From contig NZ_CP059735.1 in NCBI RefSeq assembly GCF_000948975.2, positions 1,612,001 through 1,676,000 on the forward strand: a stretch of DNA of 64,000 bases, written 5' to 3'. The first letter of the stretch is position 1; the number at the start of each line of letters is the position of its first letter. This document shows, in pieces, positions 2,051-61,756 of the stretch. Under the pieces are notes generated by a model. That model did not search any database. It was not told where the DNA came from and worked only from the letters and a program-made list of their open reading frames with translations. The position numbers were made by a program, and so were the translations under genes. The stretch is from Thalassomonas actiniarum (lineage in GTDB: Bacteria; Pseudomonadota; Gammaproteobacteria; Enterobacterales; Alteromonadaceae).

Positions 2051-2250
2051 TATTACAGGGAAGTATGTATCCGGCGCGCTCAGGATGAGCATTAGCGGGG
2101 TATTACAGGGAAGTATGTATTCGGCGCGCTCAGGATGAGCATTAGCGGGGTATTACAGGGAAGTATGTATCCGGCGCGCTCAGGATGAGCATTAGCGGGG
2201 TATTACAGGGAAGTATGTATCCGGCGCGCTCAGGATGAGCATAAGCCGGG
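2051..2250 (+). repeat. Four tandem 50-bp direct repeats
   Basis: A 50-base unit beginning TATTACAGGGAAGTATGTAT is repeated four times head to tail, at 2051, 2101, 2151 and 2201. Copies differ at only a few bases (for example C or T at unit position 21, and the last part of the fourth copy). A partial fifth unit follows at 2251-2268. The first copy abuts the T-run of the preceding terminator. No spacers separate the units, so this is not a CRISPR array. Confidence 0.9.
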
Positions 2251-2350
2251 CATTACAGGGAAGTGTGTCAGCCTGTTTTTCGGTAGAGAGCCCTCCAGAT
2301 ATAAGTTAAGTACTTACCTTCTGTAAGTAATCCGGTGTGCTCAAGATGCG
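2251..2350 (+). repeat. Interspersed intergenic repeat, degenerate copy
   Basis: After the tandem array the sequence continues as a degenerate member of the repeat family also seen near 26.35, 32.5, 46.9 and 55.3 kb. The recognisable parts are ACAGGGAAGT at the start, then AAGTTAAGTACTTACCTTC and TGTAAGTAATCC, which matches the corresponding segment at about 55.36 kb. It fills the space between two convergent genes. Confidence 0.55.
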
Positions 2351-6227: not shown

Positions 6228-7553
6228 TTAAGGTTGCAGCTGGCCCTGGGCATTGACCGGTACCCCGATAACATAATCGAGTTCGGCCTTGGCGGTTAAA
6301 AACTGTCCCAGCGCCTGGATATGGTTGCTCCGGGTTTGGGTGAGCAGATCCTGGGCGTCGAGCACGTCATTGGAGCTGCCCAGTTGCTCCTTGTAGCGTA
6401 TCTGGCTGACGCGGAAATTTTCTTTGGCCAGTGCCAGCGATTGTTGCAAGACCTTAAGGTTATTGTCTGCCTCCTGTAACTTCAGCCACACGGCGTGGAC
6501 ATCCGCCTGGAATTGGTTTTTCTGTTGCCGCAGATCTAAAGATAACCGGCGCAGGTTGTAGTCTACGGCGGCAACCTGCTGTGAAGTTTTACCCCATTGC
6601 CAGAAATTCCACTGCAGCGATAAAGTCACCTGGGTTTCGGTGACGGAATTATCAAAACTTGAGTTAAAGGCGCTGGAACCCCGCTGCAGATTGAGATCCA
6701 GGCTGGGTTTCATATCGGCTTTGGCGATATTACGATCTTGTCGGGCAATATCAATATCAAGCTGTGTCTGTTTCAGTTCGGCCCTATGGCCCAAGGTATA
6801 ATTGACGGCATCCTGATAGCGCCATTTTACCGGGCTGTAGTCAAGCTGCCCCCGGGTATCAAAGGCAAAGGTGATTTCGCGGTCCATCAAAATATTCAAC
6901 TGACGTTTGGCATCGAGGACGTTATTTTTACTGACCAGCAGTTCCTGCAGGCCGCTGGAGACCCTGACCTTGGCCTGCAATACATCATTACTCCAGATCA
7001 GGGCATTGGCGTACATATGCTCGGCATTAGCCTGGTGTTGTTTGAGGCGTTCAAGGGATTCCTGTGATTCGGCCACCAGCAGCTGGGCGGTTAATAACTG
7101 ATACCAGGCGCTTTTGAGATCAAATAACAGTTGCTCCCGGGTGCGCGCCAGGTTGAGGCGGGCGTCTAACTGATCCAGGGCGGACTTTTTATAGTTAGCC
7201 ACAAGTGCGGGGCGATACAGGGGTTGCGACAAGGTTAACCGGGCGGAGTACAAGGTATCGTCAGGCGTATCGGCGGCATCTCCCTGGAGCACTTTTTCCC
7301 CGCTACTGCTTGCTGAAAAGTTGGGCAGGAGTTGGCGAAAGGCGGCTTTTTCGCTGGCATCTTTAGCATAGGTATTTTCCTGCTGCCCCAATAATATCGG
7401 GTTTTGCTTAAATGCCAGTTCGGTAATTTGCTCAAAGCTGAGTTTGGCGCTGCCCTGGGCCATAGAGCTGAGGCCGGCGCTGAACAGCAGCAGTGCCGGC
7501 TTAATGAGGCGCTTAACTGGCTTAAGTAAATCTATGGAACCGGCTATCGTCAT
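6228..7553 (-). CDS. TolC-family outer-membrane channel protein
   Basis: This 441-residue protein has an N-terminal hydrophobic signal region and the duplicated helical repeat of TolC/OEP proteins, for example L-A-F-K-Q-N-P near residue 47 and the N-V-L-D-A-x-x-x-L-T/N pattern near residues 200 and 400. It would form the outer-membrane and periplasmic duct for an export complex. It is the last gene of a four-gene minus-strand operon, starting 14 bases after the small HlyD gene, and GGGGAAA precedes its ATG. The operon contains no ABC or RND pump, which is unusual for a TolC partner set. Confidence 0.88.
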   Translation of the reverse strand: MTIAGSIDLLKPVKRLIKPALLLFSAGLSSMAQGSAKLSFEQITELAFKQNPILLGQQENTYAKDASEKAAFRQLLPNFSASSSGEKVLQGDAADTPDDTLYSARLTLSQPLYRPALVANYKKSALDQLDARLNLARTREQLLFDLKSAWYQLLTAQLLVAESQESLERLKQHQANAEHMYANALIWSNDVLQAKVRVSSGLQELLVSKNNVLDAKRQLNILMDREITFAFDTRGQLDYSPVKWRYQDAVNYTLGHRAELKQTQLDIDIARQDRNIAKADMKPSLDLNLQRGSSAFNSSFDNSVTETQVTLSLQWNFWQWGKTSQQVAAVDYNLRRLSLDLRQQKNQFQADVHAVWLKLQEADNNLKVLQQSLALAKENFRVSQIRYKEQLGSSNDVLDAQDLLTQTRSNHIQALGQFLTAKAELDYVIGVPVNAQGQLQP

Positions 7554-7567
7554 CTGTTGTTTCCCCG

Positions 7568-8368
7568 TTATTGCTGCGGCAACCAGTTTTCTAATTCGAC
7601 ATAGCGGCCTGATAAGATTTGGTTATTGTCTGCTTGCACAGACCAGATGATGCGCCGTAAACCGCTGGCGGGATCGATATGGGGAAAGATCTGTTTTAAT
7701 TGCACCTTGCCCACCACTTGCTGATTGATGGTAATCGCGGTTTCCTGTCCCGGGTTCAGGTATTGAATAAAATCAGGGGGCACATCAATGGACAGCACTA
7801 ACTGGTTTAATGTGGCATACTCCATAATCGGGGTGCCGGACTTGACCCATTCGTTAATGCTGGCATCCTGTGTGACTATGGTACCGTCGAAGGGGGCGTA
7901 AATCACGCAGTTGGCCAGGGCGATTTTTGATAACGCCAGCTGTGCCCGGGCGGCCTGCTCCTTGGATTTTGCCATCTCAATTTCAAAGTCGGCTTCTACC
8001 AGGGCGATATCCGAGAGGATATTTTCTTTGACCAGTCGCGCAGTTTTACTGCGTTTATGCTCGGCTGCTTTCAGGGCAGAAGATGCCGACTGCATCAGGG
8101 CCTGGTTTTTGTGCATATCCGCCCTGGCCTTGTTATCATCTATGCGCGCCAGTATCTCCCCCTTGGCTGCCGACTTGCCGTTGCCCAGCATTTCCAGCAA
8201 TAGTCCTCCCTGTGAAAAGGCTATTTTGACCTGTTCACCCGGCAGCACTACGCCGCGTAAATGTATGCTGGGATCGATTTTCCCGGCGGCATCAGCCGCC
8301 ATTGCCGGCAATAGATACATCAAGCCGGATAGCAGGAAATAAGCTGAAATAAGCCTTTTTATAACCAT
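7568..8368 (-). CDS. Small HlyD/RND-type periplasmic adaptor
   Basis: This 266-residue protein has an N-terminal signal peptide ending near A-M-A-A-D, then a lipoyl/barrel-sandwich half, a short helical hairpin (about residues 85-150) and a beta-barrel segment with V-I-Y-A-P-F-D-G-T-I, a hallmark of membrane fusion proteins. It is shorter than MacA or AcrA (about 370-400 residues). It should bridge the inner-membrane components and the TolC-like channel encoded next. Its ATG overlaps the end of the upstream metalloprotease gene by 10 bases, pointing to coupled translation. It is the third adaptor-type domain encoded in this operon. Confidence 0.85.
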   Translation of the reverse strand: MVIKRLISAYFLLSGLMYLLPAMAADAAGKIDPSIHLRGVVLPGEQVKIAFSQGGLLLEMLGNGKSAAKGEILARIDDNKARADMHKNQALMQSASSALKAAEHKRSKTARLVKENILSDIALVEADFEIEMAKSKEQAARAQLALSKIALANCVIYAPFDGTIVTQDASINEWVKSGTPIMEYATLNQLVLSIDVPPDFIQYLNPGQETAITINQQVVGKVQLKQIFPHIDPASGLRRIIWSVQADNNQILSGRYVELENWLPQQ

Positions 8369-10440
8369 AAGTCTGCCCGCAATATTTTTCTGATTTCATG
8401 GAAAATATGCCGCCAAAGCGGCTGGTGCTCGCCAAAGATCAGGGCATCACCCGATAGCCCCAGCGGCGCCGGATGGACATTTTCTGTCGGTAATAGCTGC
8501 ATCCTGACCTTGAAACTTTGTTCGACATCTTCCAGGGTGGCCACTGGCGAGATAGTGGTAATTTTCCCCTGGTAGATCTCGGCCGGGCTGCCGGTCAGTT
8601 TTATCCGTCCGACATTGCCGGTTTGCAGCAGGTAAACATCGCGCTGGTCAACGATGACATCGATATAGCGCTCTGTGGCGTCCACCAGGGTCAGTATTTC
8701 GCCGTTTTGCTCGAAGAAACGTCCCTGCAGCGCCTGCGGCGGCATGCCTTCCACCTGCCAGTGGCCGGGAGGAGGGTAGATATCCAGTTGCCTGAGCTGA
8801 TGGTCCACCTGGGCGAGTTTGTCCTGGATCAGTGCCAGCTGTATCAGTAGCTGGCGGTTTTTGGCCTGCTCTTTTTCCGACAGGGCTATGGTTTGCTGTA
8901 ACCTCAGCGCCGCCTGCTCCGCCAAATAGGCTTCCCGGGTCAGGTTGAGCTCGGGAGAAGACAGGGATAAAAGTAAAGGGGTTGGCATTGTCGCCAGCTG
9001 CCTTTGCTGATCATAACCGACATAGGTCACAAAAGCGTTTTGCGGGGCATAAAGTGTCACCCGGGTGCTTTCTATGATGCCATGTGAGCGGATACGCATC
9101 TGGGGTTGCCAGAAAATCAGTACCAGTAATATCAGCAACAGGCCGCCAAGGGTGCGCTTTTGCCGCTTGCTGGAACTCCAGAAAAAAGTTTTATGCCAGT
9201 GCACTAAGGTCTCCCCCCAGCTGCCGGTGAGTTTTTTCATCAACAGGTAAAACAGATAGATAAAGCCGAGATTGGCAAAAAAGCCGAACTCCCTGGAAAC
9301 CAAACCATAACCTATGATGCCAATAGCACTGAGAATGATGGTCATATACAGGGCGACCAGGCCGCCATAGATCAGATAAATGCGTTTTTCCCGCGGCGAA
9401 GGACTCAGTGGCGGCTCGGTATCGAGCCGCAGTATATGGCGCTTAATGGACCAGGAAAACCAGGCGGTGGAATTTTGCCGCAGGTTTTCCATTTCCAGCA
9501 TATCGGTGAGGATATAGTAACCGTCGAACTTGAGCAGCGGATTGAGGTTAATAAAAAGCGAACTGGCGGTGCTGATGGTCATCAGGACAAAAGCAACAAA
9601 ACCCAGGGGATTGGAGATATCGATTAACAGCCATAGCAGGGCCGCCAGTGCCGCCAGCAAGAGTTCGACCCAGACACCGGCCAGGGCGACATAAATTTTA
9701 TGGCGTTTATGCTCAAACAGCCAGGCATCATTGACATTACAGTACAGACAGGGCTGGAATGCCAAAAACAAAAAGCCCATATCGTGCACGTCGCCGCCGA
9801 AATGCTTGCAGGTGAGGCCATGGCCGCATTCATGCAGGGCGATGGCCCCCAGGGCAATAAACCAGATGGCGAGCAGGCCGCCGAGGTTGCCCTGGTTGCT
9901 GAGGTAAATACGGTTGAAGTCCTGTAAAAATCGCTCTCCCTGAAACAGGACTAAAACAAAGGCGACGGCCACTAAGCTGATTTGCCAGCGTACCGCCGTC
10001 GGTGTCCATAAAAAACGGATGCGGTCGATAATGCGGTCAAAAAAAGCATTGGGGTCGACCAGGTGAAAACGCAGGAACAGCAAACTGCCTTTGGCCTGCA
10101 AGATCTTTTTCCGCCGCTCTTCCCGGTTCCTTTCCAGCAAAGCGGCGGTTTCTTCCTGGCGGCTGCGTTTGAGTAAATGTAAGTCTTTGCAGGAGTCGTA
10201 TATGTCCTGCAGGGCTTCGAGGTCAAATTCATATTGCTGCGACTGCTGGTTAAAGGTTTCCACCAGCTGCTCCAGGGTTTTCTTATTATCAAACAGGATC
10301 AGCATCTGGTACTGGGCCTGATCGAAATGATAATACTCCTGTTTATCCGGTTCTTTGATGACGTAGGTGGTTTTTCCCCGCTGCACCAGTTCACGGATCT
10401 TTAAATCGAGTCTCAGCGGTGGCGGAACTATGGCTTCCAT
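8359..10440 (-). CDS. PqqD-like / M50 zinc metalloprotease / HlyD fusion membrane protein
   Basis: I use the ATG at 10440 (693 residues). An in-frame TTG at 10467 is also possible and would overlap the previous gene. The first 90 residues resemble PqqD-type peptide-recognition domains. A multi-pass membrane part follows, with the site-2-protease motif H-E-C-G-H (about residues 203-207) and a second zinc-ligand motif N-P-L-L-K-F-D-G-Y-Y (Asp about 306). The last 250 residues, after another membrane segment, look like a HlyD periplasmic adaptor with a coiled hairpin (K-E-Q-A-K-N-R-Q region). Related proteins are annotated as putative peptide zinc metalloproteases in peptide maturation and export loci. 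I infer that it recognises, and perhaps trims, a leader and couples this to export. The active-site residues are intact. Confidence 0.8.
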   Translation of the reverse strand: MEAIVPPPLRLDLKIRELVQRGKTTYVIKEPDKQEYYHFDQAQYQMLILFDNKKTLEQLVETFNQQSQQYEFDLEALQDIYDSCKDLHLLKRSRQEETAALLERNREERRKKILQAKGSLLFLRFHLVDPNAFFDRIIDRIRFLWTPTAVRWQISLVAVAFVLVLFQGERFLQDFNRIYLSNQGNLGGLLAIWFIALGAIALHECGHGLTCKHFGGDVHDMGFLFLAFQPCLYCNVNDAWLFEHKRHKIYVALAGVWVELLLAALAALLWLLIDISNPLGFVAFVLMTISTASSLFINLNPLLKFDGYYILTDMLEMENLRQNSTAWFSWSIKRHILRLDTEPPLSPSPREKRIYLIYGGLVALYMTIILSAIGIIGYGLVSREFGFFANLGFIYLFYLLMKKLTGSWGETLVHWHKTFFWSSSKRQKRTLGGLLLILLVLIFWQPQMRIRSHGIIESTRVTLYAPQNAFVTYVGYDQQRQLATMPTPLLLSLSSPELNLTREAYLAEQAALRLQQTIALSEKEQAKNRQLLIQLALIQDKLAQVDHQLRQLDIYPPPGHWQVEGMPPQALQGRFFEQNGEILTLVDATERYIDVIVDQRDVYLLQTGNVGRIKLTGSPAEIYQGKITTISPVATLEDVEQSFKVRMQLLPTENVHPAPLGLSGDALIFGEHQPLWRHIFHEIRKILRADLWL

Positions 10441-10444
10441 GGGG

Positions 10445-12415
10445 TTACCAGCCGAAATTAAAGGCAAAGAAATTGCTGATCCTGCGCCATATCTTGACCA
10501 GGGCCGAGGTTTTCGGGGTGGTGATAATGGCCTGTCCGGTCATGCCGGGGCGCAGCTGATAGGGGGCATGGGCGATTTCCACTTCGGCAATAAAGCCGGT
10601 ATTGGTTTCTTCGCTTTCGAGTTCGGAAGAAGACTCGAGTACGGTATTGGGGGTTTCATAGGCCTGGCCGATATGGCGGACAATGCCGGTAAAGTACTCT
10701 CCCGGCTGGGAGCGCATAACGCCTTTGACCCTTTGGCCGACTTCGATGTCGGTTAAATCGGTTTCCGGGATATGGACGATCACCAGCAGGTTTTCGGGGT
10801 TGACGAAACGCATGATTTCTTCCCCTAAGGCAAAATAGCGTCCGGTTAATTCCTGGGGCCTGGGGGTTAAAACGATACCGTCTATGGGGGCGCGGATATT
10901 GACCTGCTCCAAATCGTACCTGGCTTTGACCACCTGGGCGTTTGCCGCCGCCCGCTCGATCGCGGATTTGCTCATTAAGGCGGCATCCGACTCCGCCCGG
11001 GCTTCAATGATTTGCCGGTCTAAAATCGCCAGTTTTGCCTCGGCTTCTACCAGGGTGAGCCTGGGCAGGGCGGGGTCGAGTTTGGCAATAATATCTCCCG
11101 ACTTCACCGTTTGTCCTTCTTTCACCATGATGTTTTCCACCCGCCCGGCCACAGGTAAAAAGGCGCCGACACCGAGCCTGGCTTCGACTATGGTCTGGCC
11201 GGAAACAAAGCGGAAAAAAGGCGCGTAATGCAGCACTTCAAGCAATAATATCGAGGCTAAGATCAGGGTCAGGGATTTTTTCTTGCCGGTGGCGAGCATT
11301 TTTTGCCCTTTTTGGCCGATATTGCTTAAGGTGGCGCTAAAGGGGATGCTTTTAAATAAACTGGCATTGCGCAGGGCGACCGTGGCCTGGGTAGCGAGAA
11401 TATGCAATAAATCGGTTTTGCCCTGGCCGGCAAAATGGGACTTATCGCTTTCAAACCAGAGCACCCCCAAAACCCCTTCATCGTCTTCGAGCGGCACCGC
11501 CCAAAAGGCATTTAATTCATGTTTTTCCAGGTAGTTGAGCCAGGCGTTAGCACCGCCTTTGAGGGTTTTTTTATAGCTGAGGCGGTCGGCAACATAAGAG
11601 CTGCGCCCTAAGGTTCTGATTTGCTCCATCAGCGCCAGTTGCTCTTGCTGTTTGTCCTGTTTGATGTCTATGGCCTCGCCGCCGGATAACACCCTGAGTT
11701 TGAGCACCTTGCGGTTTTCATCCCATAAGGCAATGGCGCCGCCGGTGATTTCTACCAGTTCATTGGTTTTATTGACGACATAATCGAGTACCTGTTCTAT
11801 GTCCAAGGTAGCGACCACTTCCTTGGAAATGGTCATCAGGATATTCATTTCCTTGACCAGGCTTTCTACTTCCAGCAGGCGGGCGTTTCTCATCGACAGC
11901 GAGGCGGCAACCGCCAGCTCTTTTACCAGCTCGCAGTCTTCTTCATCAAACCTGTGGTTAACGCCGCTTCTTTTGTTGATCACCTGGATGGCGCCGTAAG
12001 ACTCGTTACTGACGGTCAGGGGCACACAAATCATCGAATGGGTGATAAAGCCGGTATTTTTATCGACTTCGGCATTAAAGCGGGGATCTTTGCCGCAATC
12101 CATGATCAGCTCAGGTTGCTGGTTTTCGACCACGGCGCCGACCACGCCGACACCAAAAGGTAAACGCAGGCCGATCACCCGGTTTTTGGCGGTGCCTTTG
12201 GCCAGGTGGCAGACATTCTGGTTTTTTGTTTTATCCACTAACCACAAAGAGCCGGACTCTGCGTCCAGGGCTTCTAATACCCGGTCAAACACGATCGCTA
12301 CCAGCTGTTTCACCCCTTTTACATTACTGATAAATTCCTGTAAAAGCTGGCGTGAAATCGTCAAGCGCTTGATGGTTTTTTCCAGTTGGCGTATTTGTTG
12401 TTGTTGAGCGTCCAA
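10445..12415 (-). CDS. Tandem-GAF / HlyD membrane protein
   Basis: This 656-residue protein combines two cytoplasmic GAF domains (about residues 24-165 and 185-350) with a single membrane segment (about 375-395) and a periplasmic HlyD-type adaptor (about 400-645). The adaptor part shows P-V-A-G-R-V-E-N-I-M-V-K-E-G and A-P-I-D-G-I-V, typical of barrel-sandwich domains. GAF domains bind small molecules or mediate dimerisation, so a cytoplasmic signal might gate the adaptor. The ORF begins with TTG at 12415, and I saw no better in-frame ATG upstream. It is the first gene of the operon, and the next gene's ATG is 4 bases past its stop. The fusion itself is unusual. Confidence 0.8.
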   Translation of the reverse strand: MDAQQQQIRQLEKTIKRLTISRQLLQEFISNVKGVKQLVAIVFDRVLEALDAESGSLWLVDKTKNQNVCHLAKGTAKNRVIGLRLPFGVGVVGAVVENQQPELIMDCGKDPRFNAEVDKNTGFITHSMICVPLTVSNESYGAIQVINKRSGVNHRFDEEDCELVKELAVAASLSMRNARLLEVESLVKEMNILMTISKEVVATLDIEQVLDYVVNKTNELVEITGGAIALWDENRKVLKLRVLSGGEAIDIKQDKQQEQLALMEQIRTLGRSSYVADRLSYKKTLKGGANAWLNYLEKHELNAFWAVPLEDDEGVLGVLWFESDKSHFAGQGKTDLLHILATQATVALRNASLFKSIPFSATLSNIGQKGQKMLATGKKKSLTLILASILLLEVLHYAPFFRFVSGQTIVEARLGVGAFLPVAGRVENIMVKEGQTVKSGDIIAKLDPALPRLTLVEAEAKLAILDRQIIEARAESDAALMSKSAIERAAANAQVVKARYDLEQVNIRAPIDGIVLTPRPQELTGRYFALGEEIMRFVNPENLLVIVHIPETDLTDIEVGQRVKGVMRSQPGEYFTGIVRHIGQAYETPNTVLESSSELESEETNTGFIAEVEIAHAPYQLRPGMTGQAIITTPKTSALVKIWRRISNFFAFNFGW

Positions 12416-12625
12416 AATTGCTTTGCCCTGCCGCTTAAGGCATTAAAAGTGAAGACTAATTTGTTCCGATGTCTTTAAGAATAGATGATATTTACTATTA
12501 AAAATTAACTAATGACCTACTTGATAACAAAACTCACAAAAAGCTGAGAATAAGACTGGTAATAAAGCCGTTAGTAAGACTAGTTATAAGACCTGTAGCT
12601 CAATCAATAGTCAAATGAAAGAAAG
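12416..12625 (-). promoter_or_regulatory. Upstream region of the export operon
   Basis: About 200 AT-rich bases precede the TTG start of the GAF-HlyD gene and should contain the operon promoter. Loosely repeated TAAGACTGGTAAT / TAAGACTAGTTAT segments lie near 12550-12590. I could not assign a -35/-10 pair with confidence. Confidence 0.35.
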
Positions 12626-12656
12626 ACTTACCGGAACAAGTACTGTTCCGGTAAGT
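12626..12656 (-). terminator. Perfect 13-bp hairpin, probable terminator of the 47-codon ORF
   Basis: ACTTACCGGAACA and TGTTCCGGTAAGT form a perfect inverted repeat around a 5-base loop. Read on the minus strand it follows the small ORF and is followed by a T-rich stretch (CTTTCTTTCATTT), so it probably ends that transcript before the export operon. Confidence 0.7.
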
Positions 12657-12704
12657 TTGAAGTTTATCGGGGCGGCGGCTATTTATCCGCCACCCGGTTG
12701 GCGG

Positions 12705-12848
12705 TTAAGGCCGGGGGCGGTTAGTGACCTGTTTGGCCTTGATCTGATGTATATTGGCGGTAATTTGTGCCTGTCTTGCTTTAGAGCGAGCCATGGCCGC
12801 GCTTGCCGCTGTTTTTACTTCATTCAGTTTGTTTTGTGGAATAGTCAT
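12705..12848 (-). CDS. Small 47-residue Ala/Lys-rich hypothetical protein
   Basis: This short ORF begins MTIPQNKLNEVKTAAS and ends NRPRP. Its ATG at 12848 lies 7 bases after AAGGAG, so this start is preferred over an in-frame ATG six bases upstream that is too close to the ribosome site. It is predicted to be helical and basic with no hydrophobic segment. It sits between the repeat-protein gene and the export operon, on the same strand, and is followed by a strong hairpin. It may be a small cargo, chaperone or regulator of the system. I do not recognise a family. Confidence 0.6.
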   Translation of the reverse strand: MTIPQNKLNEVKTAASAAMARSKARQAQITANIHQIKAKQVTNRPRP

Positions 12849-12969
12849 ATCCATTCTCCTTGGGTATTTAAGTAAAACTCGTGGTAAACAACATTTCATT
12901 TATCTTCTGCATAAAAAACGTTGCATAAAACATTAAGTTTATTGTGTAAAGCTCGGTTAAAGTTTTGCC

Positions 12970-13003
12970 CCTGCGCTAAATCCTGTGTTCAATAAAGCGC
13001 AGG
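12970..13003 (-). other. Inverted repeat downstream of the mini-ORF array
   Basis: CCTGCGCT and AGCGCAGG pair over an 18-base loop just after the last mini-ORF. No clear T-run follows on the minus strand, so it may stabilise the transcript end rather than terminate it. Confidence 0.4.
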
Positions 13004-13013
13004 AGCCTCGTTA

Positions 13014-13127
13014 TTACGTCCACTGCTCGGTTGTACCATCGGCATAGGTCACGCTGCCGCTGCCGTCAGGGTTATACTGCCAGCCATTTGAGCCCGTAGG
13101 CTTCCTGAGAAGAGGCATAGAGTCCAT
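13014..13127 (-). CDS. Mini-ORF copy 3, distal repeat of the repeat-protein C-terminus
   Basis: This 37-residue ORF begins MDSMPLLRKPTGSNG and ends ADGTTEQWT. Its last 22 residues equal the C-terminus of the 1246-residue protein. Its ATG overlaps the stop of mini-ORF copy 2 in the arrangement TAATG. Compared with copy 2 it differs at four bases, all silent. Expression is not demonstrated, and there is no strong ribosome site, so it would depend on re-initiation. Confidence 0.35.
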   Translation of the reverse strand: MDSMPLLRKPTGSNGWQYNPDGSGSVTYADGTTEQWT

Positions 13128-13240
13128 TACGTCCATTGCTCGGTTGTACCGTCGGCATAGGTCACGCTGCCGCTGCCGTCAGGGTTATACTGCCAGCCGT
13201 TTGAGCCCGTTGGCTTCCTGAGAAGAGGCATAGAGTCCAT
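13127..13240 (-). CDS. Mini-ORF copy 2, repeat of the repeat-protein C-terminus
   Basis: This is the second 37-residue unit (MDSMPLLRKPTGSNG...ADGTTEQWT), again joined to its upstream neighbour by TAATG. It differs from copy 1 mainly at third codon positions. Only one change, Asn to Ser, alters the protein. Confidence 0.35.
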   Translation of the reverse strand: MDSMPLLRKPTGSNGWQYNPDGSGSVTYADGTTEQWT

Positions 13241-13353
13241 TACGTCCACTGCTCGGTAGTGCCGTCGGCATAGGTCACGCTGCCGCTGCCGTCAGGGTTA
13301 TACTGCCAGCCGCTTGAGCCCGTAGGCTTCCTGAGAAGAGGCATAGAGTCCAT
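13240..13353 (-). CDS. Mini-ORF copy 1, overlapping the stop of the repeat-protein gene
   Basis: This 37-residue ORF starts on the A of the TAA stop of the 1246-codon gene (TAATG at 13351-13355 on the minus strand). Its sequence begins MDSMPLLRKPTGSSG and continues as a copy of the large protein's last 22 residues. A one-base overlap of 114-base ORFs explains the 113-base repeat period. It may be translated by termination-reinitiation, or the array may be only a by-product of recombination. Confidence 0.35.
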   Translation of the reverse strand: MDSMPLLRKPTGSSGWQYNPDGSGSVTYADGTTEQWT

Positions 13354-16300
13354 TACGTCCACTGCTCGGTAGTGCCGTCGGCATAGGTCACGCTGCCGCT
13401 GCCGTCAGGGTTATACTGCCAGGTTGTGCCGTCTGCTTCGGTATGGCTGGAAGTACCGTCGCTTGACCAGGTACCACTACTGCCATCGGCATTGGTATAA
13501 CTGCCGGAGCCATCGCTATTCCAGGTGCTGGTATTGCCCATACCGTCATCCCAGCTGCCATTGCCCTGGCCGTCCCAGGTTTCCACCGAGCCGTCGGCAA
13601 AAGTAACAGAGCCGGAGCCATCGGCATTCCAGCTTTCCACCGTGCCGTCGGGATGGGTGGCGGTGCCCGAGCCGTCTTCGTTATAGGTATACTGGGTACC
13701 GTCATCGCCGGTGACATCACCTGTACCGCCATCGCCGAGATCGTTACCCGCGGCATCGGTATAGGTGATATTGCCCTGAGCATCCCAGGTTTCCGTGGTG
13801 CCGTCGGCCGAGGTATAGCTGCCGGAGCCGTCGCTGTTATAGGTACCGCTGCTGCCGTCGCTATTGGTCCAGCTGCTGGAGCCGTCGCTGTTGTAGGTAC
13901 CGCTGCTGCCATCTGAGCTGGTCCAGCTACCGCTGCCATCGCTATTCCAGGTACTGGTATTGCCCATGCCGTCATCCCAGCTGCCGCTGCCATCACTGCC
14001 CCAGCTGCTGGAGGAGCCGTCGGCATAGGTTTCGCTGCCGGAGCCATCTGCATTGTAGGTGCCACTGCTGCCGTCGCTGCTGGTCCAGCTGCTGGAGCCG
14101 TCACTATTATAGGTATTACTGCTGCCATCGGCCCCGGTATAGGTGGAGCTGCCGTCGGCGGACCAGCTGCCGCTGCTGCCGTCGCTACTGGTCCAGCTGC
14201 CAGAGCCGTCGCTGCTCCAGGAATTGGTATTGCCCATACCGTCATCCCAGCTGCCGCCGCCCTGGCCATCCCAGGTTTCCACAGAGCCGTCGGCATAAGC
14301 GACAGAGCCTGAGCCGTCCACGTTCCAGCTTTCCACCGTGCCGTCAGGGTGGGTAGCGGTGCCTGAGCCGTCTTCGTTATAGGTATACTGGGTACCGTCA
14401 TCGCCGATAACATCCCCGCTGCCGCCGTCGCCGAGATCGTTACCCGCGGCATCGGTATAGGTGATATTGCCCTGGGCATCCCAGGTTTCCGTGGTGCCGT
14501 CGGCTGAGGTATAGCTGCCGGAGCCGTCGGCGTTATAGGTGCCGCTGCTGCCGTCACTATTGGTCCAGCTGCTGGAGCCGTCGCTGTTATAAGTGCCGCT
14601 GCTGCCGTCACTGCTGGTCCAGCTGCCGGAGCCGTCGCTATGCCAGGTGCTGGAGTTGCCCATACCGTCATCCCAGCTGCCGCTGCCATCGGGGGCCCAG
14701 CTGCTGGATGAGCCGTCGGCATAGGTTTCGCTGCCTGAGCCATCGGCATTGTAGGTACCTGAATTCCCCTGGCCGTCCCCCCAGCTGCCGCTGCCATCGG
14801 CATTATAGGTGCTGTAGGAACCGTCGGCCCCGGTGTAGGTGGAGCTGCCGTCTGAGCTCCAGGAGCCGCTGCTGCCGTCTGAGCCGGTAAAGCTGCCGCT
14901 GCCGTCGCTATGCCAGGTACTGGAGTTGCCCATACCGTCATCCCAGCTGACGCCGCCCTGGCCATCCCAGGTTTCCATCGAGCCGTCGCTAAAGGCTATC
15001 GAACCTGAGCCGTCCGCGTTCCAGGTTTCCACCGTGCCGTCAGGGTGAACTGCGCTGCCGGAGCCGTCTTCATTATAGGTATAGGTGGTGCCGTCATCGC
15101 CGGTTACCACCCCGGCGGTTTCATCATAAGTACTGGTATCGCCGTTGACGTCATAATAAGTGACATTGCCCTGGGCATCCCATACTTCACTGCTGCCGTC
15201 GGCTGCGGTATAGCTGCCGGAGCCGTCGGCATTATAGGTGCCGCTGCTGCCGTCAGCATTGGTCCAACTGCTGGAGCCGTCTGAGTTATAGGTGCCGTTT
15301 GAGCCGTCACTGCTGGTCCAGCTGCCGCTGCCGTCGCTATTCCAGGTACTGGAATTGCCCATGCCGTCATCCCAATGGCCGCTGCCGTCGCTGTTCCAGC
15401 TGCTGGAAGAGCCATCGGCATAGGTTTCGCTGCCTGAGCCATCGGCGGCCCAGGTGCCTGAGTTGCCCTGGCCGTCCCCCCAGCTGCCGGAGCCATCGCT
15501 ATTGTAGGTATTGTAGGAGCCGTCGGCGGCATAATAACTGGAGCTGCCGTCGGCCGACCAGGTGCCGCTTGAGCCGTCACTGCCGGTATAGCTGCCGCTG
15601 CCATCGGCATTCCAGGTACTGGAATTGCCCTGGCCGTCATCCCAGCTGCCGCCGCCCTGGCCATCCCAGGTTTCCACCGAGCCATCGCTAAAGGCGATCG
15701 AACCTGAGCCGTCGCTGTTCCAGGTTTCTACCGTGCCGTCGGGATGGGTGGCGGTGCCTGAGCCGTCTTCGTTATAGGTATAGGTAGTGCCGTCATCTGA
15801 GGTAACCTCTCCCATGCCACCATCGCCGAGATCGTTACCGGCGGCGTCGGTATAGGTGATATTCCCTTGGGCATCCCAGCTTTCCGTGGTGCCGTCGGCT
15901 GAGGTATAGCTGCCGGAGCCGTCGCTGTTATAGCTGCCGCTGCTGCCGTCAGAGTTGGTCCAGCTGGAGGAGCCGTCGCTGTTATAGGTGCCGCTTGAGC
16001 CGTCGCTGCTGGTCCAGCTGCCGGAGCCGTCACTGTTCCAGGTGCTGGAGTTGCCCATACCGTCATCCCAGCTGCCGCTGCCGTCGGGGGCCCAGCTGCT
16101 GGAAGAGCCGTCGGCATAGGTTTCGCTGCCTGAACCATCGGCATTGTAGGTGCCCGAGTTGCCCTGGCCGTCGCCCCAGCTGCCGGAGCCATCGGTATTG
16201 GTTGTGCTGTAGGAGCCGTCAGCCCCCTGGTAAGTGGAACTGCCATCGCTACTGTAGCTGCCGCTTGAGCCGTCGCTGCTGGTCCAGCTACTGGAGCCGT

Positions 16301-17093
16301 CGCTGCTCCAGGTACTGGAGTTGCCCTGGCCGTCATCCCAGCTGCCGCCTCCCTGGCCATCCCAGGTTTCCATAGAGCCATCGGCATAAGCAATAGAGCC
16401 GGAGCCGTCACTGCTCCAGGTCTCAACCGTGCCGTCCGGGGAGACCGCAGAGCCGGAGCCGTCGCTGTCATAATTATATTCGGTGCCGTCATCGCCGGTG
16501 ACCACACCCGTACCGCCGTCGCCCATATCATTGCCTGCGGCATCGGTATAGGTGATATTGCCCTGGGCATCCCAGGTTTCGGTGACGCCGTCGGCGGAAG
16601 TATAACTGCCGGAGCCGTCGGGGTTATAGCTGCCGCTGCTGCCGTCGCTATTGGTCCAGCTGCTTGAGCCGTCAGAGTTATAGCTGCCGCTGCTGCCATC
16701 GCTGCTTTGCCAGGTGCCGGAGCCGTCGGCATTCCAGCTGCTGGAATTGCCCATGCCGTCGTCCCAGCTGCCGCTGCCGTCGGCCTCCCAGGTTTCGACA
16801 CTGCCGTCGGGATAAACGGCTGAGCCGCTGCCGTCGCCGTTGTCGGTATAAACCGTTTCCTGCTCGCCGGTCATGTCACCCGGGGGAGGGGCATCGTCTG
16901 CAGGGGGGGCATCTGAGGTGGTGTCTGCCGCTGGCGGCTGGTCTGTTGTCGTGCCGGTATCGTCGGTCGTGGTATCTGCGCCTAAATCTCCTACCAGACC
17001 GCCTATGCCACCCGGGGCTATGCGGTCTTCGAGTTTAGAGACCTGGGACTCGACCTTGGTTTTCAGTTTTTTAGAGGGAATTTTCTTTGCCAT
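13353..17093 (-). CDS. Giant DGS/Trp-repeat protein with an N-terminal LEDRIAPGG leader
   Basis: This 1246-residue protein starts after AGGAAATGG with a basic leader (MAKKIPSKKLKTK) ending K-L-E-D-R-I-A-P-G-G (residues 20-29). An acidic, Pro/Thr-rich linker runs to about residue 75. The rest is built from units of 10-11 residues of the type x-D-G-S-x-S-W/Y. These are organised in five super-repeats of about 232 residues, marked by W-D-A-Q-G-N (offsets 696, 699, 696 and 696 bases). After Arg24 I found no Lys, Arg or Cys. There is no Sec signal peptide and no C-terminal secretion signal I recognise. I infer a secreted or surface-displayed repetitive protein whose leader is read by the neighbouring PqqD/M50 export operon. 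It is not a known toxin by anything visible. Confidence 0.8.
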   Translation of the reverse strand: MAKKIPSKKLKTKVESQVSKLEDRIAPGGIGGLVGDLGADTTTDDTGTTTDQPPAADTTSDAPPADDAPPPGDMTGEQETVYTDNGDGSGSAVYPDGSVETWEADGSGSWDDGMGNSSSWNADGSGTWQSSDGSSGSYNSDGSSSWTNSDGSSGSYNPDGSGSYTSADGVTETWDAQGNITYTDAAGNDMGDGGTGVVTGDDGTEYNYDSDGSGSAVSPDGTVETWSSDGSGSIAYADGSMETWDGQGGGSWDDGQGNSSTWSSDGSSSWTSSDGSSGSYSSDGSSTYQGADGSYSTTNTDGSGSWGDGQGNSGTYNADGSGSETYADGSSSSWAPDGSGSWDDGMGNSSTWNSDGSGSWTSSDGSSGTYNSDGSSSWTNSDGSSGSYNSDGSGSYTSADGTTESWDAQGNITYTDAAGNDLGDGGMGEVTSDDGTTYTYNEDGSGTATHPDGTVETWNSDGSGSIAFSDGSVETWDGQGGGSWDDGQGNSSTWNADGSGSYTGSDGSSGTWSADGSSSYYAADGSYNTYNSDGSGSWGDGQGNSGTWAADGSGSETYADGSSSSWNSDGSGHWDDGMGNSSTWNSDGSGSWTSSDGSNGTYNSDGSSSWTNADGSSGTYNADGSGSYTAADGSSEVWDAQGNVTYYDVNGDTSTYDETAGVVTGDDGTTYTYNEDGSGSAVHPDGTVETWNADGSGSIAFSDGSMETWDGQGGVSWDDGMGNSSTWHSDGSGSFTGSDGSSGSWSSDGSSTYTGADGSYSTYNADGSGSWGDGQGNSGTYNADGSGSETYADGSSSSWAPDGSGSWDDGMGNSSTWHSDGSGSWTSSDGSSGTYNSDGSSSWTNSDGSSGTYNADGSGSYTSADGTTETWDAQGNITYTDAAGNDLGDGGSGDVIGDDGTQYTYNEDGSGTATHPDGTVESWNVDGSGSVAYADGSVETWDGQGGGSWDDGMGNTNSWSSDGSGSWTSSDGSSGSWSADGSSTYTGADGSSNTYNSDGSSSWTSSDGSSGTYNADGSGSETYADGSSSSWGSDGSGSWDDGMGNTSTWNSDGSGSWTSSDGSSGTYNSDGSSSWTNSDGSSGTYNSDGSGSYTSADGTTETWDAQGNITYTDAAGNDLGDGGTGDVTGDDGTQYTYNEDGSGTATHPDGTVESWNADGSGSVTFADGSVETWDGQGNGSWDDGMGNTSTWNSDGSGSYTNADGSSGTWSSDGTSSHTEADGTTWQYNPDGSGSVTYADGTTEQWT

Positions 17094-55682: not shown

Positions 55683-55742
55683 CTTGTTATAGTACCTTGA
55701 AATAAAACCTACTAAAAACAAGTGATTATCTTTTTTGTAAAC

Positions 55743-55759
55743 TTGGCATCCCAACTGCA
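55743..55759 (+). promoter_or_regulatory. Sigma-54 promoter of the ABC export operon
   Basis: TTGGCATCCCAACTGCA matches the -24/-12 pattern TGGCAC-N5-TTGC with exact spacing (TGGCAT, five bases, CTGCA). The start point would be near 55770, ahead of the ATG at 55809. This excludes the upstream in-frame start at 55722 for the adaptor gene if this promoter is used. Confidence 0.8.
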
Positions 55760-55808
55760 ACCTTACTGGACAAATGTTAATTCTTTATCAAGGTGCAAGA
55801 GTTTAATT

Positions 55809-57080
55809 ATGATAGCGGGTACCCAAAGTCAGGATGAAGTTATTCAAAGTTCTAAAAAAAATTGGCCATTAAGGCAGCTGTTACTGTTGGCCCTGGCGAT
55901 ACTATTAGCTTATCTGGCGCTGCCGACTTTAAGCCAGTGGTATTCCTCTATTCCAGATGTCGATGCTAATGATTTAGTGATTGCGCCTGTGCTGCGCGGT
56001 GAACTTGTCCGCGAAGCCTCGGTTTCGGGTAAGGCGGTGGCCGCCAATGCCCCACGCTTATTTAGCACCGAGACGGGCAAAATTACCTTGCTGGCTAAGC
56101 CGGGGGAAGCGGTAGAGCTCGGCCAGTTGGTGGCGCGCCTGAGTAGTCCGGAGCTCGATGCCGAGATCAAACAGCAGGAGTCTACCTTAGAGCAGCTCAA
56201 TATCAATGCCAGCCGGGGGCTGTTAGAAGATAAAGAAGCGCAGCTTGAACTGGAAAGCCAGATGAATGCTGCCTTGTCGAGCCTAAATGTTGCCAGGCGA
56301 GAACAACAGCGGGCACAGATTTCCTTTGGTAAACAAATTATCAGTGAAGTGGATTGGATGAAAAGCCAGGATACCTTAACCGATGCACAGCGTTTCTATC
56401 AGCATGCGAAAAAGCGGGTCGAGCTGGCCCGGGAGCGGTTAACCTTTGAAACCCGCCACCGGGAATTCTTAGTGAAAAAACAGCAGCTGATCTTGGATGA
56501 GCTCAAACGCAGGCATCTGGCTTTAGCGATCACCGCACCGGTAACCGGCGTGGTGGGTAACTGGCTGGTGGCGCAAAAAAATGCCATTGCCGCCAATACC
56601 GAGATCATGACCATAGTGGACTTGTCCGAGTATGAAGCCGAGCTGAGTGTGCCAGAATTTTATGCCGATGACTTGGGATTGGGCTTGACTGTGATGATGA
56701 AGATTGCCGGCGTTGACGTCAGTGGTGAAATCATTGCCATCTCGCCTGAAATCAAAGACAACCTGGTGAAAGTCAGGGCGAGCATAAAAGCGGGAACAGC
56801 CATTGCCTTAAGGCAAAATCAGCGTATCAATGCCCGTATTGAGTTTGAAAAGAAAACGGATGTGCTGATGGTGAAACGTGGTGCTTTCATCGGGGCATTA
56901 GGCGGTAAGTTTGCCTATAAGGTCGGTGAAGATAACCAGGGCAGGAAAATTGCCATCAATACAGGGATCAGCAGTTTGGATTATATCGAGCTGATCTCGG
57001 GGCTAAAAGAGGGAGAGCAGGTGATTATTTCAGATTATCAGGACTTTAGCGCATCGGAGCAAATTAACATCAGCTATTAA
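55809..57080 (+). CDS. MacA-like periplasmic adaptor
   Basis: From the ATG at 55809 (MIAGTQSQDEV, 423 residues) the protein has an N-terminal membrane anchor (about residues 20-40), a barrel-sandwich domain, a long helical hairpin (about 110-230) and a beta-barrel with I-T-A-P-V-T-G-V-V-G. The open frame extends to 55722, but that start lies upstream of the sigma-54 transcription start. It belongs to the HlyD/MacA adaptors. With the following ABC ATPase and two FtsX-type permeases it forms a MacAB-type exporter or an envelope stress transporter. No TolC gene is in this operon. Confidence 0.88.
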   Translation: MIAGTQSQDEVIQSSKKNWPLRQLLLLALAILLAYLALPTLSQWYSSIPDVDANDLVIAPVLRGELVREASVSGKAVAANAPRLFSTETGKITLLAKPGEAVELGQLVARLSSPELDAEIKQQESTLEQLNINASRGLLEDKEAQLELESQMNAALSSLNVARREQQRAQISFGKQIISEVDWMKSQDTLTDAQRFYQHAKKRVELARERLTFETRHREFLVKKQQLILDELKRRHLALAITAPVTGVVGNWLVAQKNAIAANTEIMTIVDLSEYEAELSVPEFYADDLGLGLTVMMKIAGVDVSGEIIAISPEIKDNLVKVRASIKAGTAIALRQNQRINARIEFEKKTDVLMVKRGAFIGALGGKFAYKVGEDNQGRKIAINTGISSLDYIELISGLKEGEQVIISDYQDFSASEQINISY

Positions 57081-57147
57081 CCGGGCTATTGCCATAGCGA
57101 CAAATTAAAAATAAAGCAGAGAAAAAATTAATTTATAAGAGGGCACA

Positions 57148-57879
57148 GTGATGCTTAACATGAACAATATTTCACGTATTTACCGCACCGATACTATCCA
57201 GACCCATGCCTTGCGGGATTTTTCCCTGGCGGTAGCACAGGGGGAGTTTGTCGCCGTTACCGGCCCTTCCGGCTCGGGCAAGTCGACTTTTTTAAATGTT
57301 GCCGGTTTGCTGGATAACTTCGACCAGGGGGAGTACCAACTCGACGGTGTCAGTGTCAAGGGGTTAAAGGATGATGAGTTATCCCGGTTAAGAAATGAAA
57401 AAATCGGTTTTATTTTTCAAAATTATAACCTGATCCCGGACTACAGTATTTTTGACAATGTCGATATGCCCTTGCGTTACCGCGGCTTTAACGGCGCCGA
57501 GCGCAAGCGCCGGGTTGAGCAGGCGCTGGAAAAAGTCGGCCTGGCCTCACGGCTGGATTATTTACCCAGCCAGTTATCCGGCGGTCAGCAGCAGCGTGTG
57601 GCCATTGCCCGGGCGCTGGCGGGGGAGCCGAAAATATTATTGGCGGATGAACCCACAGGTAACCTGGACTCTTTGATGGCGCGCCAGGTGATGGAGCTGC
57701 TGCATAAACTCAATGAGGAAGGCACCACCATTATCATGGTCACCCATGACCCGGATCAGGCACGGGAAGTAAAACGTAATGTCCAGGTGATTGATGGCCA
57801 GATTTCCGATTTCAGTATCTATGCGCCGTTGCAACCCCAAACCTCTGCCGATGAAAAGCAGGAGTTGAGCCATGCTTAG
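57148..57879 (+). CDS. ABC transporter ATPase, MacB/LolD type
   Basis: This 243-residue ATPase has Walker A (G-P-S-G-S-G-K-S-T), the L-S-G-G-Q-Q-Q-R-V signature and Walker B (I-L-L-A-D-E-P-T-G-N-L-D). The closest families are MacB, LolD and FtsE, which drive conformational changes of FtsX-type permeases rather than moving substrate through a classic channel. Its stop overlaps the next gene by 8 bases. Confidence 0.93.
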   Translation: MMLNMNNISRIYRTDTIQTHALRDFSLAVAQGEFVAVTGPSGSGKSTFLNVAGLLDNFDQGEYQLDGVSVKGLKDDELSRLRNEKIGFIFQNYNLIPDYSIFDNVDMPLRYRGFNGAERKRRVEQALEKVGLASRLDYLPSQLSGGQQQRVAIARALAGEPKILLADEPTGNLDSLMARQVMELLHKLNEEGTTIIMVTHDPDQAREVKRNVQVIDGQISDFSIYAPLQPQTSADEKQELSHA

Positions 57880-59155: not shown

Positions 59156-59171
59156 TAAATAAGGAACCCCC

Positions 59172-61736: not shown

Positions 61737-61756
61737 AGCACAAGTCTGGAAATTCT

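What the first reader, a model, noticed from the sequence alone, without database searches (positions are those of the whole stretch)
6228..17093. Candidate export system without a pump: GAF-HlyD, PqqD-like/M50/HlyD, HlyD and TolC beside a repetitive cargo
Four overlapping or tightly spaced genes encode three HlyD-type adaptor parts and a TolC channel, but no ABC, RND or MFS pump. One adaptor is fused to a site-2-type zinc protease (HECGH, NPLLKFDGYY) with a PqqD-like N-terminus. PqqD domains bind leader peptides, and M50 proteases cut within or near membranes. The adjacent 1246-residue repeat protein has a short basic leader ending LEDRIAPGG and no Sec signal. I propose that the operon recognises this leader, may cut after GG, and exports the protein to the surface. 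The domains and order are seen, while the function is inferred.
Basis: partly seen in the sequence, partly recalled or inferred. Interest (0 to 1): 0.85.

Follow-up and report, generated by a model that had tools for sequence, protein, structure and literature searches.

The report
Leader-guided export of giant surface proteins
This gene group looks like a little-known export machine that reads a short LExR tag at the start of very large surface proteins and sends them out of the cell; relatives of the machine sit beside tagged proteins in many distant bacteria, but no step has been shown at the bench.

Summary
In detail: TolC, a HlyD adaptor, an N-domain-M50-HlyD fusion and a GAF-GAF-HlyD fusion lie beside a 1246-aa repeat protein starting ...KLEDRIAPGGIGGLVGDLG, with no ABC, RND or MFS pump near. 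I add a conserved 47-aa gene. Comparative tests support the leader idea. In the window's family, machine and leader were each found in 8 of 147 genomes, 7 shared. M50-HlyD relatives (~25% identical) neighbour giant proteins with LExR leaders, known so far as the orphan motifs LEPR-XLL and Planc_extracel. In 258 genomes of the class 34 have M50-HlyD; of 35 with a leader hit 22 have it, of the 22 strongest 20. All 9 plasmid loci read (of 14) carry the leader. Leader types sort into separate parts of the M50-HlyD tree. The N-domain is RRE/PqqD-like, and the nearest curated family is the daptide leader peptidase. Some relatives encode a SecA-like ATPase beside M50-HlyD (module published in 2015, role unknown); the window's genome has only one SecA. 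Best reading: RRE binds LExR, a SecA-type motor drives export, M50 clips the leader, HlyD/TolC lead outside. Binding, cutting, motor and export are inferred.

The parts
13353..17093 (-). cargo: 1246-aa acidic Gly/Ser/Asp-rich repeat protein (Tcp10_C-type repeats) with N-terminal LEDR leader
   Evidence: LEDR cargo beside 7 of 7 orthologous operons whose neighbourhood is intact
17007..17033 (-). LEDRIAPGG leader core (residues 21-29 of the cargo); LEDRIAPGGIGGLVGDLG is invariant in the 7 leaders aligned; a second cargo of G609 has one change in it (GDFG)
13013..13422 (-). 113-bp tandem array (3.6 copies) repeating the last codons of the cargo gene
12705..12848 (-). 47-aa basic Ala/Lys-rich protein, ribosome-binding site AAGGAG; a like gene of 41-47 aa lies between cargo and GAF-HlyD in 8 of 8 clade-A loci (two copies in L030); role unknown
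   Evidence: (three pairwise comparisons with genus-mates, summed: 21 synonymous and 6 non-synonymous codon changes; ORF 92% identical against 63-77% in flanks, measured for L028 and L029)
10445..12415 (-). GAF-GAF-TM-HlyD adaptor, likely sensor/gate
8359..10467 (-). RRE(PqqD-like)-M50-HlyD fusion, leader reader and candidate leader peptidase; likely start ATG at 10440
   Evidence: HExxH and a following D[GA]Y in 120 of 120 M50-HlyD loci (115 of 120 by a stricter pattern)
7568..8368 (-). RND-type periplasmic adaptor (HlyD family) with a Sec signal-like N-terminus (by eye)
6228..7553 (-). TolC-family outer-membrane channel

Best explanation
The operon is a dedicated export apparatus for a giant or repetitive surface protein marked by an N-terminal LExR leader (here LEDRIAPGG). 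Proposed working: the cytoplasmic RRE/PqqD-like domain of the M50-HlyD protein binds the leader; the polypeptide is threaded across the inner membrane by a SecA-type ATPase (a dedicated SecA-like protein in parts of the S and P lineages; presumably the single housekeeping SecA with SecYEG, or a path through the M50 membrane part, in the window's lineage); the M50 site clips the leader at the small residue that ends the motif (LExRhhh[S/D/A/G][A/G], so after ...GG here); and the HlyD parts with TolC form the duct to the surface. The GAF domains of the second adaptor may gate it. Shown: the gene set, its association with LExR cargos, leader type following machine clade, an RRE-like N-domain by predicted fold and profile, conserved catalytic residues. 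Inferred: binding, cutting, motor, export route and gating.
For: Family: orthologues of P0003 in 8 of 147 genomes and LEDR leader in 8 of 147, 7 shared; the two singletons (G537, G577) are drafts of the same genus, and G537's cargo is cut by the contig end. Order: full-length M50-HlyD in 11 of 148 genomes (a 12th matches only in part); LEPR-8K over cut-off in 9 of 148, 8 of them among the 11 (Fisher 3e-10; 1 of 14 control genomes also passes the cut-off). Proximity: strict motif in 28 of 295 same-strand ORFs within 6 kb of M50-HlyD against 0.21 expected from shuffled N-termini (L053 and L095 are one locus, so 27; six are clade A). Plasmids: 9 of 9 loci read, of 14 found. Tree of 74: labelled types A, D, S and P never mix in the sets that hold them. 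RRE. Leader-peptidase kinship: NF041824 daptide_HExxH over residues 32-409, E 3e-51, below that model's cut-off; the daptide paper calls MpaP an RRE-dependent intramembrane peptidase that removes the leader (PMC10036551, passages). Motor: SecA-like gene near M50-HlyD.
Against: No experiment. Two loci have a large neighbour with a Sec-like N-terminus and no LExR (L091, L222). In 11 of the 42 loci no leader ORF was seen and no large ORF was cut before its N-terminus (those two included). In most of the Planctomycetes/Verrucomicrobia loci no leader protein is adjacent. 13 of 35 class genomes with a leader hit at E<=0.05 lack M50-HlyD; most of these hits are weak, but G270 (1.3e-7) and G391 (7.5e-5) are strong (G384 of G270's genus has M50-HlyD). 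G125's leader is LEPK, not LExR. The window's genome and 26 other positive gammaproteobacterial genomes show no dedicated SecA, so the motor there is unknown. The window cargo itself is not hit by LEPR-8K. Leader type following machine clade would also arise from plain co-inheritance of neighbouring genes.
Confidence: 0.7

Rival explanations
1. Export is by ordinary Sec: the LExR leader is an odd Sec signal, and the M50/HlyD/TolC set acts later, for example by clipping a membrane-held precursor and passing or releasing it at the surface.
For: Cargo N-termini are basic and mildly hydrophobic and were not separable from Sec signals by hydropathy; two large neighbours have plain Sec-like signals (L091, L222); the window genome has only one SecA; one paper lists Planc_extracel among signal peptides (PMC10952558, one passage).
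Against: Charged E and R sit inside the would-be hydrophobic core: in the 7 clade-A leaders found by gene order and in 8 of 8 plasmid cargos chosen by position rather than by motif. The RRE-like domain precedes the first membrane segment (hydropathy scan) and is therefore probably cytoplasmic (inference).
Confidence: 0.15
2. A pump encoded elsewhere (ABC, RND or MFS) is borrowed, and the operon is a type 1 secretion variant with the M50 part only regulatory.
For: HlyD and TolC parts are those of type 1 systems; ABC-type genes lie within 20 kb in one relative (L037, by reading); [quoted passage not shown]
Against: One ABC ATPase and one ABC permease hit among 94 proteobacterial neighbours, with no RND or MFS among the 25 commonest of 73 families; no ABC, RND or MFS among the 25 commonest of 104 families in 96 other neighbours. 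A SecA-like gene takes the place in a part of the loci.
Confidence: 0.1
3. The operon matures or exports a small peptide or compound (RiPP-like), and the repeat protein is a chance neighbour.
For: RRE-M50 kinship with daptide proteases; a conserved 47-aa gene lies in the operon.
Against: The machine and LExR proteins co-occur in three nested genome samples and in plasmids. A scan for the 47-aa kind of gene found it only in clade A.
Confidence: 0.05

Closest known systems
SecA_DEAD / Peptidase_M50-HlyD / GAF-HlyD / HlyD module of Kamneva, Poudel and Ward 2015 (PMC4452313; parts 1-4 of 7 read, and a term search)
   Same: Same M50-HlyD and GAF-HlyD proteins, further HlyD parts, sometimes OEP, no ABC transporter; the paper suggests SecA as ATPase and M50 as pore
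   Different: The window's lineage lacks the secondary SecA. [quoted passage not shown] the term search of its main text found no LEPR, PqqD or Planc_extracel and one use of 'substrate'.
LEPR-XLL domain (NCBIfam NF012209) and Planc_extracel (Pfam PF07595)
   Same: N-terminal LExRxLL-like motif of large proteins; found on cargos of the relatives
   Different: The window's LEDRIAPGG leader does not score in NF012209.
Daptide leader peptidase MpaP (NCBIfam NF041824; PMC10036551, passages read)
   Same: RRE domain with an intramembrane peptidase (Pfam PF02163 in that paper's figure legend) that removes a leader
   Different: The window's protein has an added HlyD part, scores 174.6 against a cut-off of 300, and its presumed substrate is over 1000 aa, not a short peptide
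Type 1 secretion (HlyB/HlyD/TolC; general features recalled)
   Same: HlyD adaptors and TolC channel
   Different: No ABC transporter beside it; a presumed N-terminal rather than C-terminal signal

Membership tests
Kamneva 2015 SecA/M50-HlyD module | M50-HlyD fusion protein | tested here: met
Kamneva 2015 SecA/M50-HlyD module | GAF-HlyD protein in the same cluster | tested here: met
Kamneva 2015 SecA/M50-HlyD module | secondary SecA_DEAD protein | tested here: not met
   own genome: one SecA-type match, in a 904-aa frame
Type 1 secretion system | ABC transporter with the HlyD/TolC genes | tested here: not met
   none among the operon and its neighbours; a pump elsewhere in the genome was not excluded
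Type 1 secretion system | HlyD-family adaptor and TolC-family channel | tested here: met
LEPR-XLL / Planc_extracel leader | model score over cut-off | tested here: not met
   window cargo gives no NCBIfam hit and no PF07595 hit at E<=0.1; several relatives pass NF012209's cut-off
LEPR-XLL / Planc_extracel leader | LExR core near the N-terminus of a large protein | tested here: met
   LEDRIAPGG at residues 21-29
Daptide RRE-M50 peptidase | NF041824 over cut-off | tested here: not met
   174.6 bits, cut-off 300
RRE / PqqD fold | three strands then three helices; similarity to known RREs | tested here: met
   predicted fold; profile hits 3g2b, 6jx3, 5v1u; Pfam PqqD in 28 of 64 members but not the window's own. 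A structure comparison could not be run, so 'met' rests on prediction and profiles.
M50 / site-2 protease | HExxH and the distal D motif | tested here: met
   120 of 120 loci; Pfam PF02163 over cut-off
Leader-directed exporter | leader needed for export and cut off | not testable with these tools
   needs bench work

The most novel reading that the evidence does not exclude
A widespread but unnamed secretion system uses an RRE domain, of the kind known from peptide-natural-product maturation, to read an N-terminal LExR leader on proteins of up to about 14,000 residues, clips it with an intramembrane protease fused to the duct, and is driven by a SecA-type ATPase instead of an ABC pump; LEPR-XLL and Planc_extracel are its substrate signals in Proteobacteria, Nitrospirota, Planctomycetota and Verrucomicrobiota. 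The window holds a lineage with its own leader dialect, a private 47-aa helper and no dedicated motor.
Probability: 0.5. Interest if true: 0.92.

Novelty: new variant of a known kind. Interest (0 to 1): 0.82.

Why it matters
Two orphan N-terminal motifs on very large surface proteins, and an orphan SecA/M50/HlyD gene module, would each get a function from the other. The link makes direct experiments possible (leader mutation, M50 active-site mutation, mature N-terminus by proteomics) and would add an ABC-free, leader-directed route to the list of Gram-negative export systems. It would also set right labels now given to the parts, such as efflux adaptor, site-2 protease, prepilin peptidase or DEAD/DEAH box helicase.

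Tried and rejected
Comparison of the AlphaFold models with the PDB was tried 14 times and never accepted, so the RRE claim rests on the predicted order of strands and helices and on sequence profiles. Hydropathy of cargo N-termini did not separate them from the operon's own Sec-type N-termini. A first idea that the window's pump is a dedicated SecA was rejected: the own genome has one SecA only. A paired presence/absence test in Planctomycetes was planned and not done; 40 genomes already known to have M50-HlyD (12 of the loci given are not from Planctomycetes) were scanned for PF07595: 21 of 40 at E<=0.01, 14 over cut-off, controls 1 of 14 and 0 over cut-off. That shows compatibility, not association. 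NF012209 is a weak leader model: 7 of 14 control genomes ring at E<=1, 1 over cut-off. Literature: ten searches, seen as listings; five papers opened in part (PMC4452313, PMC10036551, PMC10952558, PMC10868602, PMC9611531). The library holds no preprints and few subscription papers, so absence there is weak.

Limits of the counts. The E<=0.005 cut for leaders in the class sample was set after seeing the list. Among those 20 genomes some leader frames are short (G218 48 aa, G237 145 aa, G224 497 aa; contig ends may explain some). The 34 M50-HlyD genomes include fragments. Leader profile A3 was built from loci of the order and genome contigs samples and holds the own-genome S leader, which is one of the 258 genomes. 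The motif table was made from leaders found with patterns that fix L/E/R and, for most, positions 7-9, so its regularity there is by construction. Genomes in the Fisher tests are not independent by descent. Tree labels were given by me from the nearby cargo before the tree was built; 32 of 74 rows had none, L030 was labelled A by its repeat protein (its N-terminus is cut off), and for L057, L071, L098, L123 and L131 the leader protein is on the other strand or farther off. An earlier wording of mine, that E and R are invariant in 40 leaders, was circular and is withdrawn in favour of cargos chosen by position.
Full report
OBSERVATION. The window is part of a 7.49-Mb genome in two contigs. Its class is Gammaproteobacteria by inference: G435, drawn as 'same class', has a contig of the same length and gene layout as one titled Gammaproteobacteria (L053/L095). 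On the minus strand lie, in order, the cargo (13353-17093), a 47-aa gene (12705-12848), GAF-GAF-HlyD (10445-12415), the N-domain-M50-HlyD fusion (8359-10467), a HlyD adaptor (7568-8368) and TolC (6228-7553).

CLOSE RELATIVES. P0003 has orthologues of 51-96% identity in 7 other genomes of the 147 searched in the family. In the six of these loci with complete surroundings the neighbour is a cargo with the same leader (with the window 7 of 7); in the seventh (L030) the cargo runs off the contig. LEDRIAPGGIGGLVGDLG is invariant in the 7 leaders aligned, while the transporters have drifted to about 50% identity. A leader profile found 8 of 147 genomes: the same ones except that G577 replaces G537, both drafts of one genus. 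G609 has a second LEDR protein (1622 aa, GDFG for GDLG) on a contig where no machine gene was recognised, so one machine may serve more than one cargo. A gene like the 47-aa one is in 8 of 8 clade-A loci; within the genus it changes mostly at silent sites and is better conserved than its flanks. A scan by composition and ribosome-binding site found no such gene in the other clades (two hits in L098 and L212 do not resemble it).

DISTANT RELATIVES AND THE LExR LEADER. Homologues about 25% identical over nearly the whole length occur in 11 of 148 genomes of the order, including a second system in the window's own genome (C1:2914096-2916237). In 9 of these 11 genomes a giant protein with an LExR leader lies in the locus (LEPRLLYSAD, LEPRILLDGA, LEQRLMFDGA, LEPRMMFDAA, LEARMLFDGA, MEPRLLLSAE, LEPRILFDGA, LEPRQLFDGA, LESRILLDGA). 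In the other two (G079, G125) the contig ends near the locus and a leader-bearing large frame (LEPR; LEPK) is on another contig. NCBIfam calls the motif LEPR-XLL, and Pfam's Planc_extracel hits three of six planctomycete and verrucomicrobial leader proteins weakly, below its cut-off. Over the order, LEPR-8K passes its cut-off in 9 genomes, 8 of them with M50-HlyD; the ninth hit is in a 301-aa frame; of 14 control genomes 1 passes.

FURTHER SAMPLES. In 258 genomes of the class, M50-HlyD (fragments included) is in 34. The leader profile hits 35 at E<=0.05, of which 22 have M50-HlyD (p 1e-14), and 22 at E<=0.005, of which 20 do (p 9e-19). Leader frames reach 14,112 aa (G386), 13,848 (G200) and 12,249 (G254). 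Of the 80 best named loci from the genome collection, most are from Planctomycetes, where a leader protein is mostly not adjacent but often abundant in the genome (up to 45 Planc_extracel matches; 21 of 40 genomes scanned have any at E<=0.01). Of 42 loci re-read (22 named loci outside Planctomycetes and Verrucomicrobia and the 20 of the class sample), 15 show a leader ORF, 16 have an ORF of over 300 aa cut before its N-terminus (not all need be cargos), and 11 show neither; two of the 11 (L091, L222) have a large neighbour with a Sec-like start instead. In the 120 M50-HlyD loci given, clade A included, the strict motif is in 28 of 295 same-strand ORFs within 6 kb (0.21 expected after shuffling; L053 and L095 are one locus, so 27), 3 of 110 on the other strand (0.03) and 2 of 78 further off (0.03). 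As a further test, 14 plasmid records hold a match to P0003. I read 9, one for each of nine species; five Azospirillum records (H6, H8-H11) were left. All 9 carry an LExR leader on a large protein: in eight the gene directly upstream of the machine genes (with a DUF3467 gene between in two), in Tistrella one about 4 kb downstream. RefSeq names two of them LEPR-XLL domain-containing protein.

LEADER DIALECTS FOLLOW THE MACHINE. I labelled loci by leader: A (LEDRIAPGG), D (LExR with D[GA]), S (LExR with SA[DE], and LEPRILLAAD), P (planctomycete/verrucomicrobial forms such as LExRxLLA). In a tree of 74 M50-HlyD proteins (42 labelled, 32 not) the five groups, the unlabelled counted as one, need 14 changes against a shuffled mean of 37 (0 of 200 shuffles as low). 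The 8 A rows are one branch (support 100); all 19 D rows lie in one set of 25 with 6 unlabelled (99); all 9 S rows in one set of 29 with 20 unlabelled (94, under the tool's star limit); all 6 P rows in one set of 11 with 5 unlabelled (96). D spans Gamma-, Beta- and Alphaproteobacteria, Nitrospirota and Myxococcota, so type follows the machine more than the host; the window's genome has A and S systems. In the plasmids the four S-type and five D-type loci fit the same picture: SecA-like genes in three of the four S loci and none of the five D loci. This is what leader recognition by M50-HlyD would produce, though shared descent of neighbouring genes would produce it too.

PARTS. The N-domain is predicted as three strands and then three helices in both models (mean pLDDT 81.7 and 77.8). 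The family profile's best PDB matches are PqqD (3g2b, E 1.7e-4), TfuB1 (6jx3) and TbiB1 (5v1u), the last two lasso-peptide RREs as I recall. PqqD is hit in 28 of 64 members, though not in the window's. The nearest curated family to P0003 is the daptide protease (E 3e-51, residues 32-409, below cut-off), described in the daptide paper as an RRE-dependent intramembrane peptidase that removes the leader. HExxH and D[GA]Y are kept in 120 of 120 loci, so catalysis seems to be selected. The HlyD part matches MacA/EmrA-type adaptors.

THE MOTOR. Among neighbours of M50-HlyD, HlyD and OEP families dominate; ABC_tran occurs once and an ABC permease once in 94 proteobacterial neighbours. SecA-like proteins of about 620-750 aa lie in the same locus, mostly within a few kb, in 16 of the loci first surveyed, one of them a fragment and one (L107) in a longer frame; GEGKT and DEAD residues are kept in at least 90% of the 14 aligned. 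In 80 chosen genomes such a short SecA-like frame is in 11 of 38 gammaproteobacterial genomes with M50-HlyD (in 10 of the 11 within about 200 bases of it, by comparison), 8 of 8 planctomycete genomes, 0 of 32 genomes without M50-HlyD (one of them, G163, has a second, partial match in a 1050-aa frame), and neither of the two exceptions G270 and G391. In the tree it falls only in the S and P parts. The window's genome has a single SecA. Kamneva and colleagues described the SecA-bearing module in 2015, proposed that SecA and the M50 protein might replace the ABC transporter, and called the broader role completely unknown. I found their paper after seeing the SecA genes; the module is their finding. 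What is added here is the substrate signal, the RRE reading, the SecA-free lineages and the leader dialects.

CONCLUSION. The best account is a leader-directed exporter for giant surface proteins. The link between machine and leader is strong (about 0.95); that it exports them is likely (about 0.8); that M50 cuts the leader is plausible (about 0.6); that a SecA-type motor drives it is plausible for the S and P lineages and open for the window's. It works like, but by test is not a strict member of, the 2015 module (no secondary SecA), type 1 secretion (no ABC beside it), LEPR-XLL (score) or the daptide proteases (score).

Noticed in passing
window 12705-12848 (-): Conserved 47-aa basic gene between cargo and GAF-HlyD; a like gene is in 8 of 8 clade-A loci (two copies in L030); role unknown.
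   Followed up: partly
window 13013-13422: 113-bp tandem array repeats the end of the cargo gene, giving extra copies of its last codons after the stop; L028 shows similar leftovers.
   Followed up: no
window 2051-2268: 50-bp tandem repeat, 4.4 copies, 96% matches, between ORFs.
   Followed up: no
window 55722-60386: HlyD-like protein, ABC ATPase and two MacB/FtsX-like permeases followed by a response regulator and histidine kinase (60411-63220), about 38 kb from the operon (names from reading the translations, no family scan).
   Followed up: no
L091 and L222: Large proteins beside M50-HlyD that start with a Sec-like signal and lack LExR: exceptions that may mean another cargo class.
   Followed up: no
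L230 17023-19047, L233 16135-18096: SecA-like genes of the module are annotated as 'prepilin peptidase' and 'DEAD/DEAH box helicase'.
   Followed up: yes
L232 11657-11953, L233 10742-11047: A DUF3467 gene lies between the leader-bearing giant gene and the HlyD genes in two alphaproteobacterial plasmids.
   Followed up: no
L035 7184-13674: Third M50 locus of the own genome: short M50 protein with HlyD-like, ABC ATPase and MacB-like permease genes, that is, a version with a pump (roles partly from reading the sequence).
   Followed up: no
L145 8347-13215: Second LEDRIAPGG cargo (1622 aa) in G609 on a contig without recognised machine genes.
   Followed up: partly
L148 5137-10149: A cargo with LEPK instead of LEPR (LEPKILLSAE) in G125, beside a HlyD-like gene.
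   Followed up: no
L032 6619-10703: The cargo of G579 is split over two overlapping frames; read as two pieces only.
   Followed up: no
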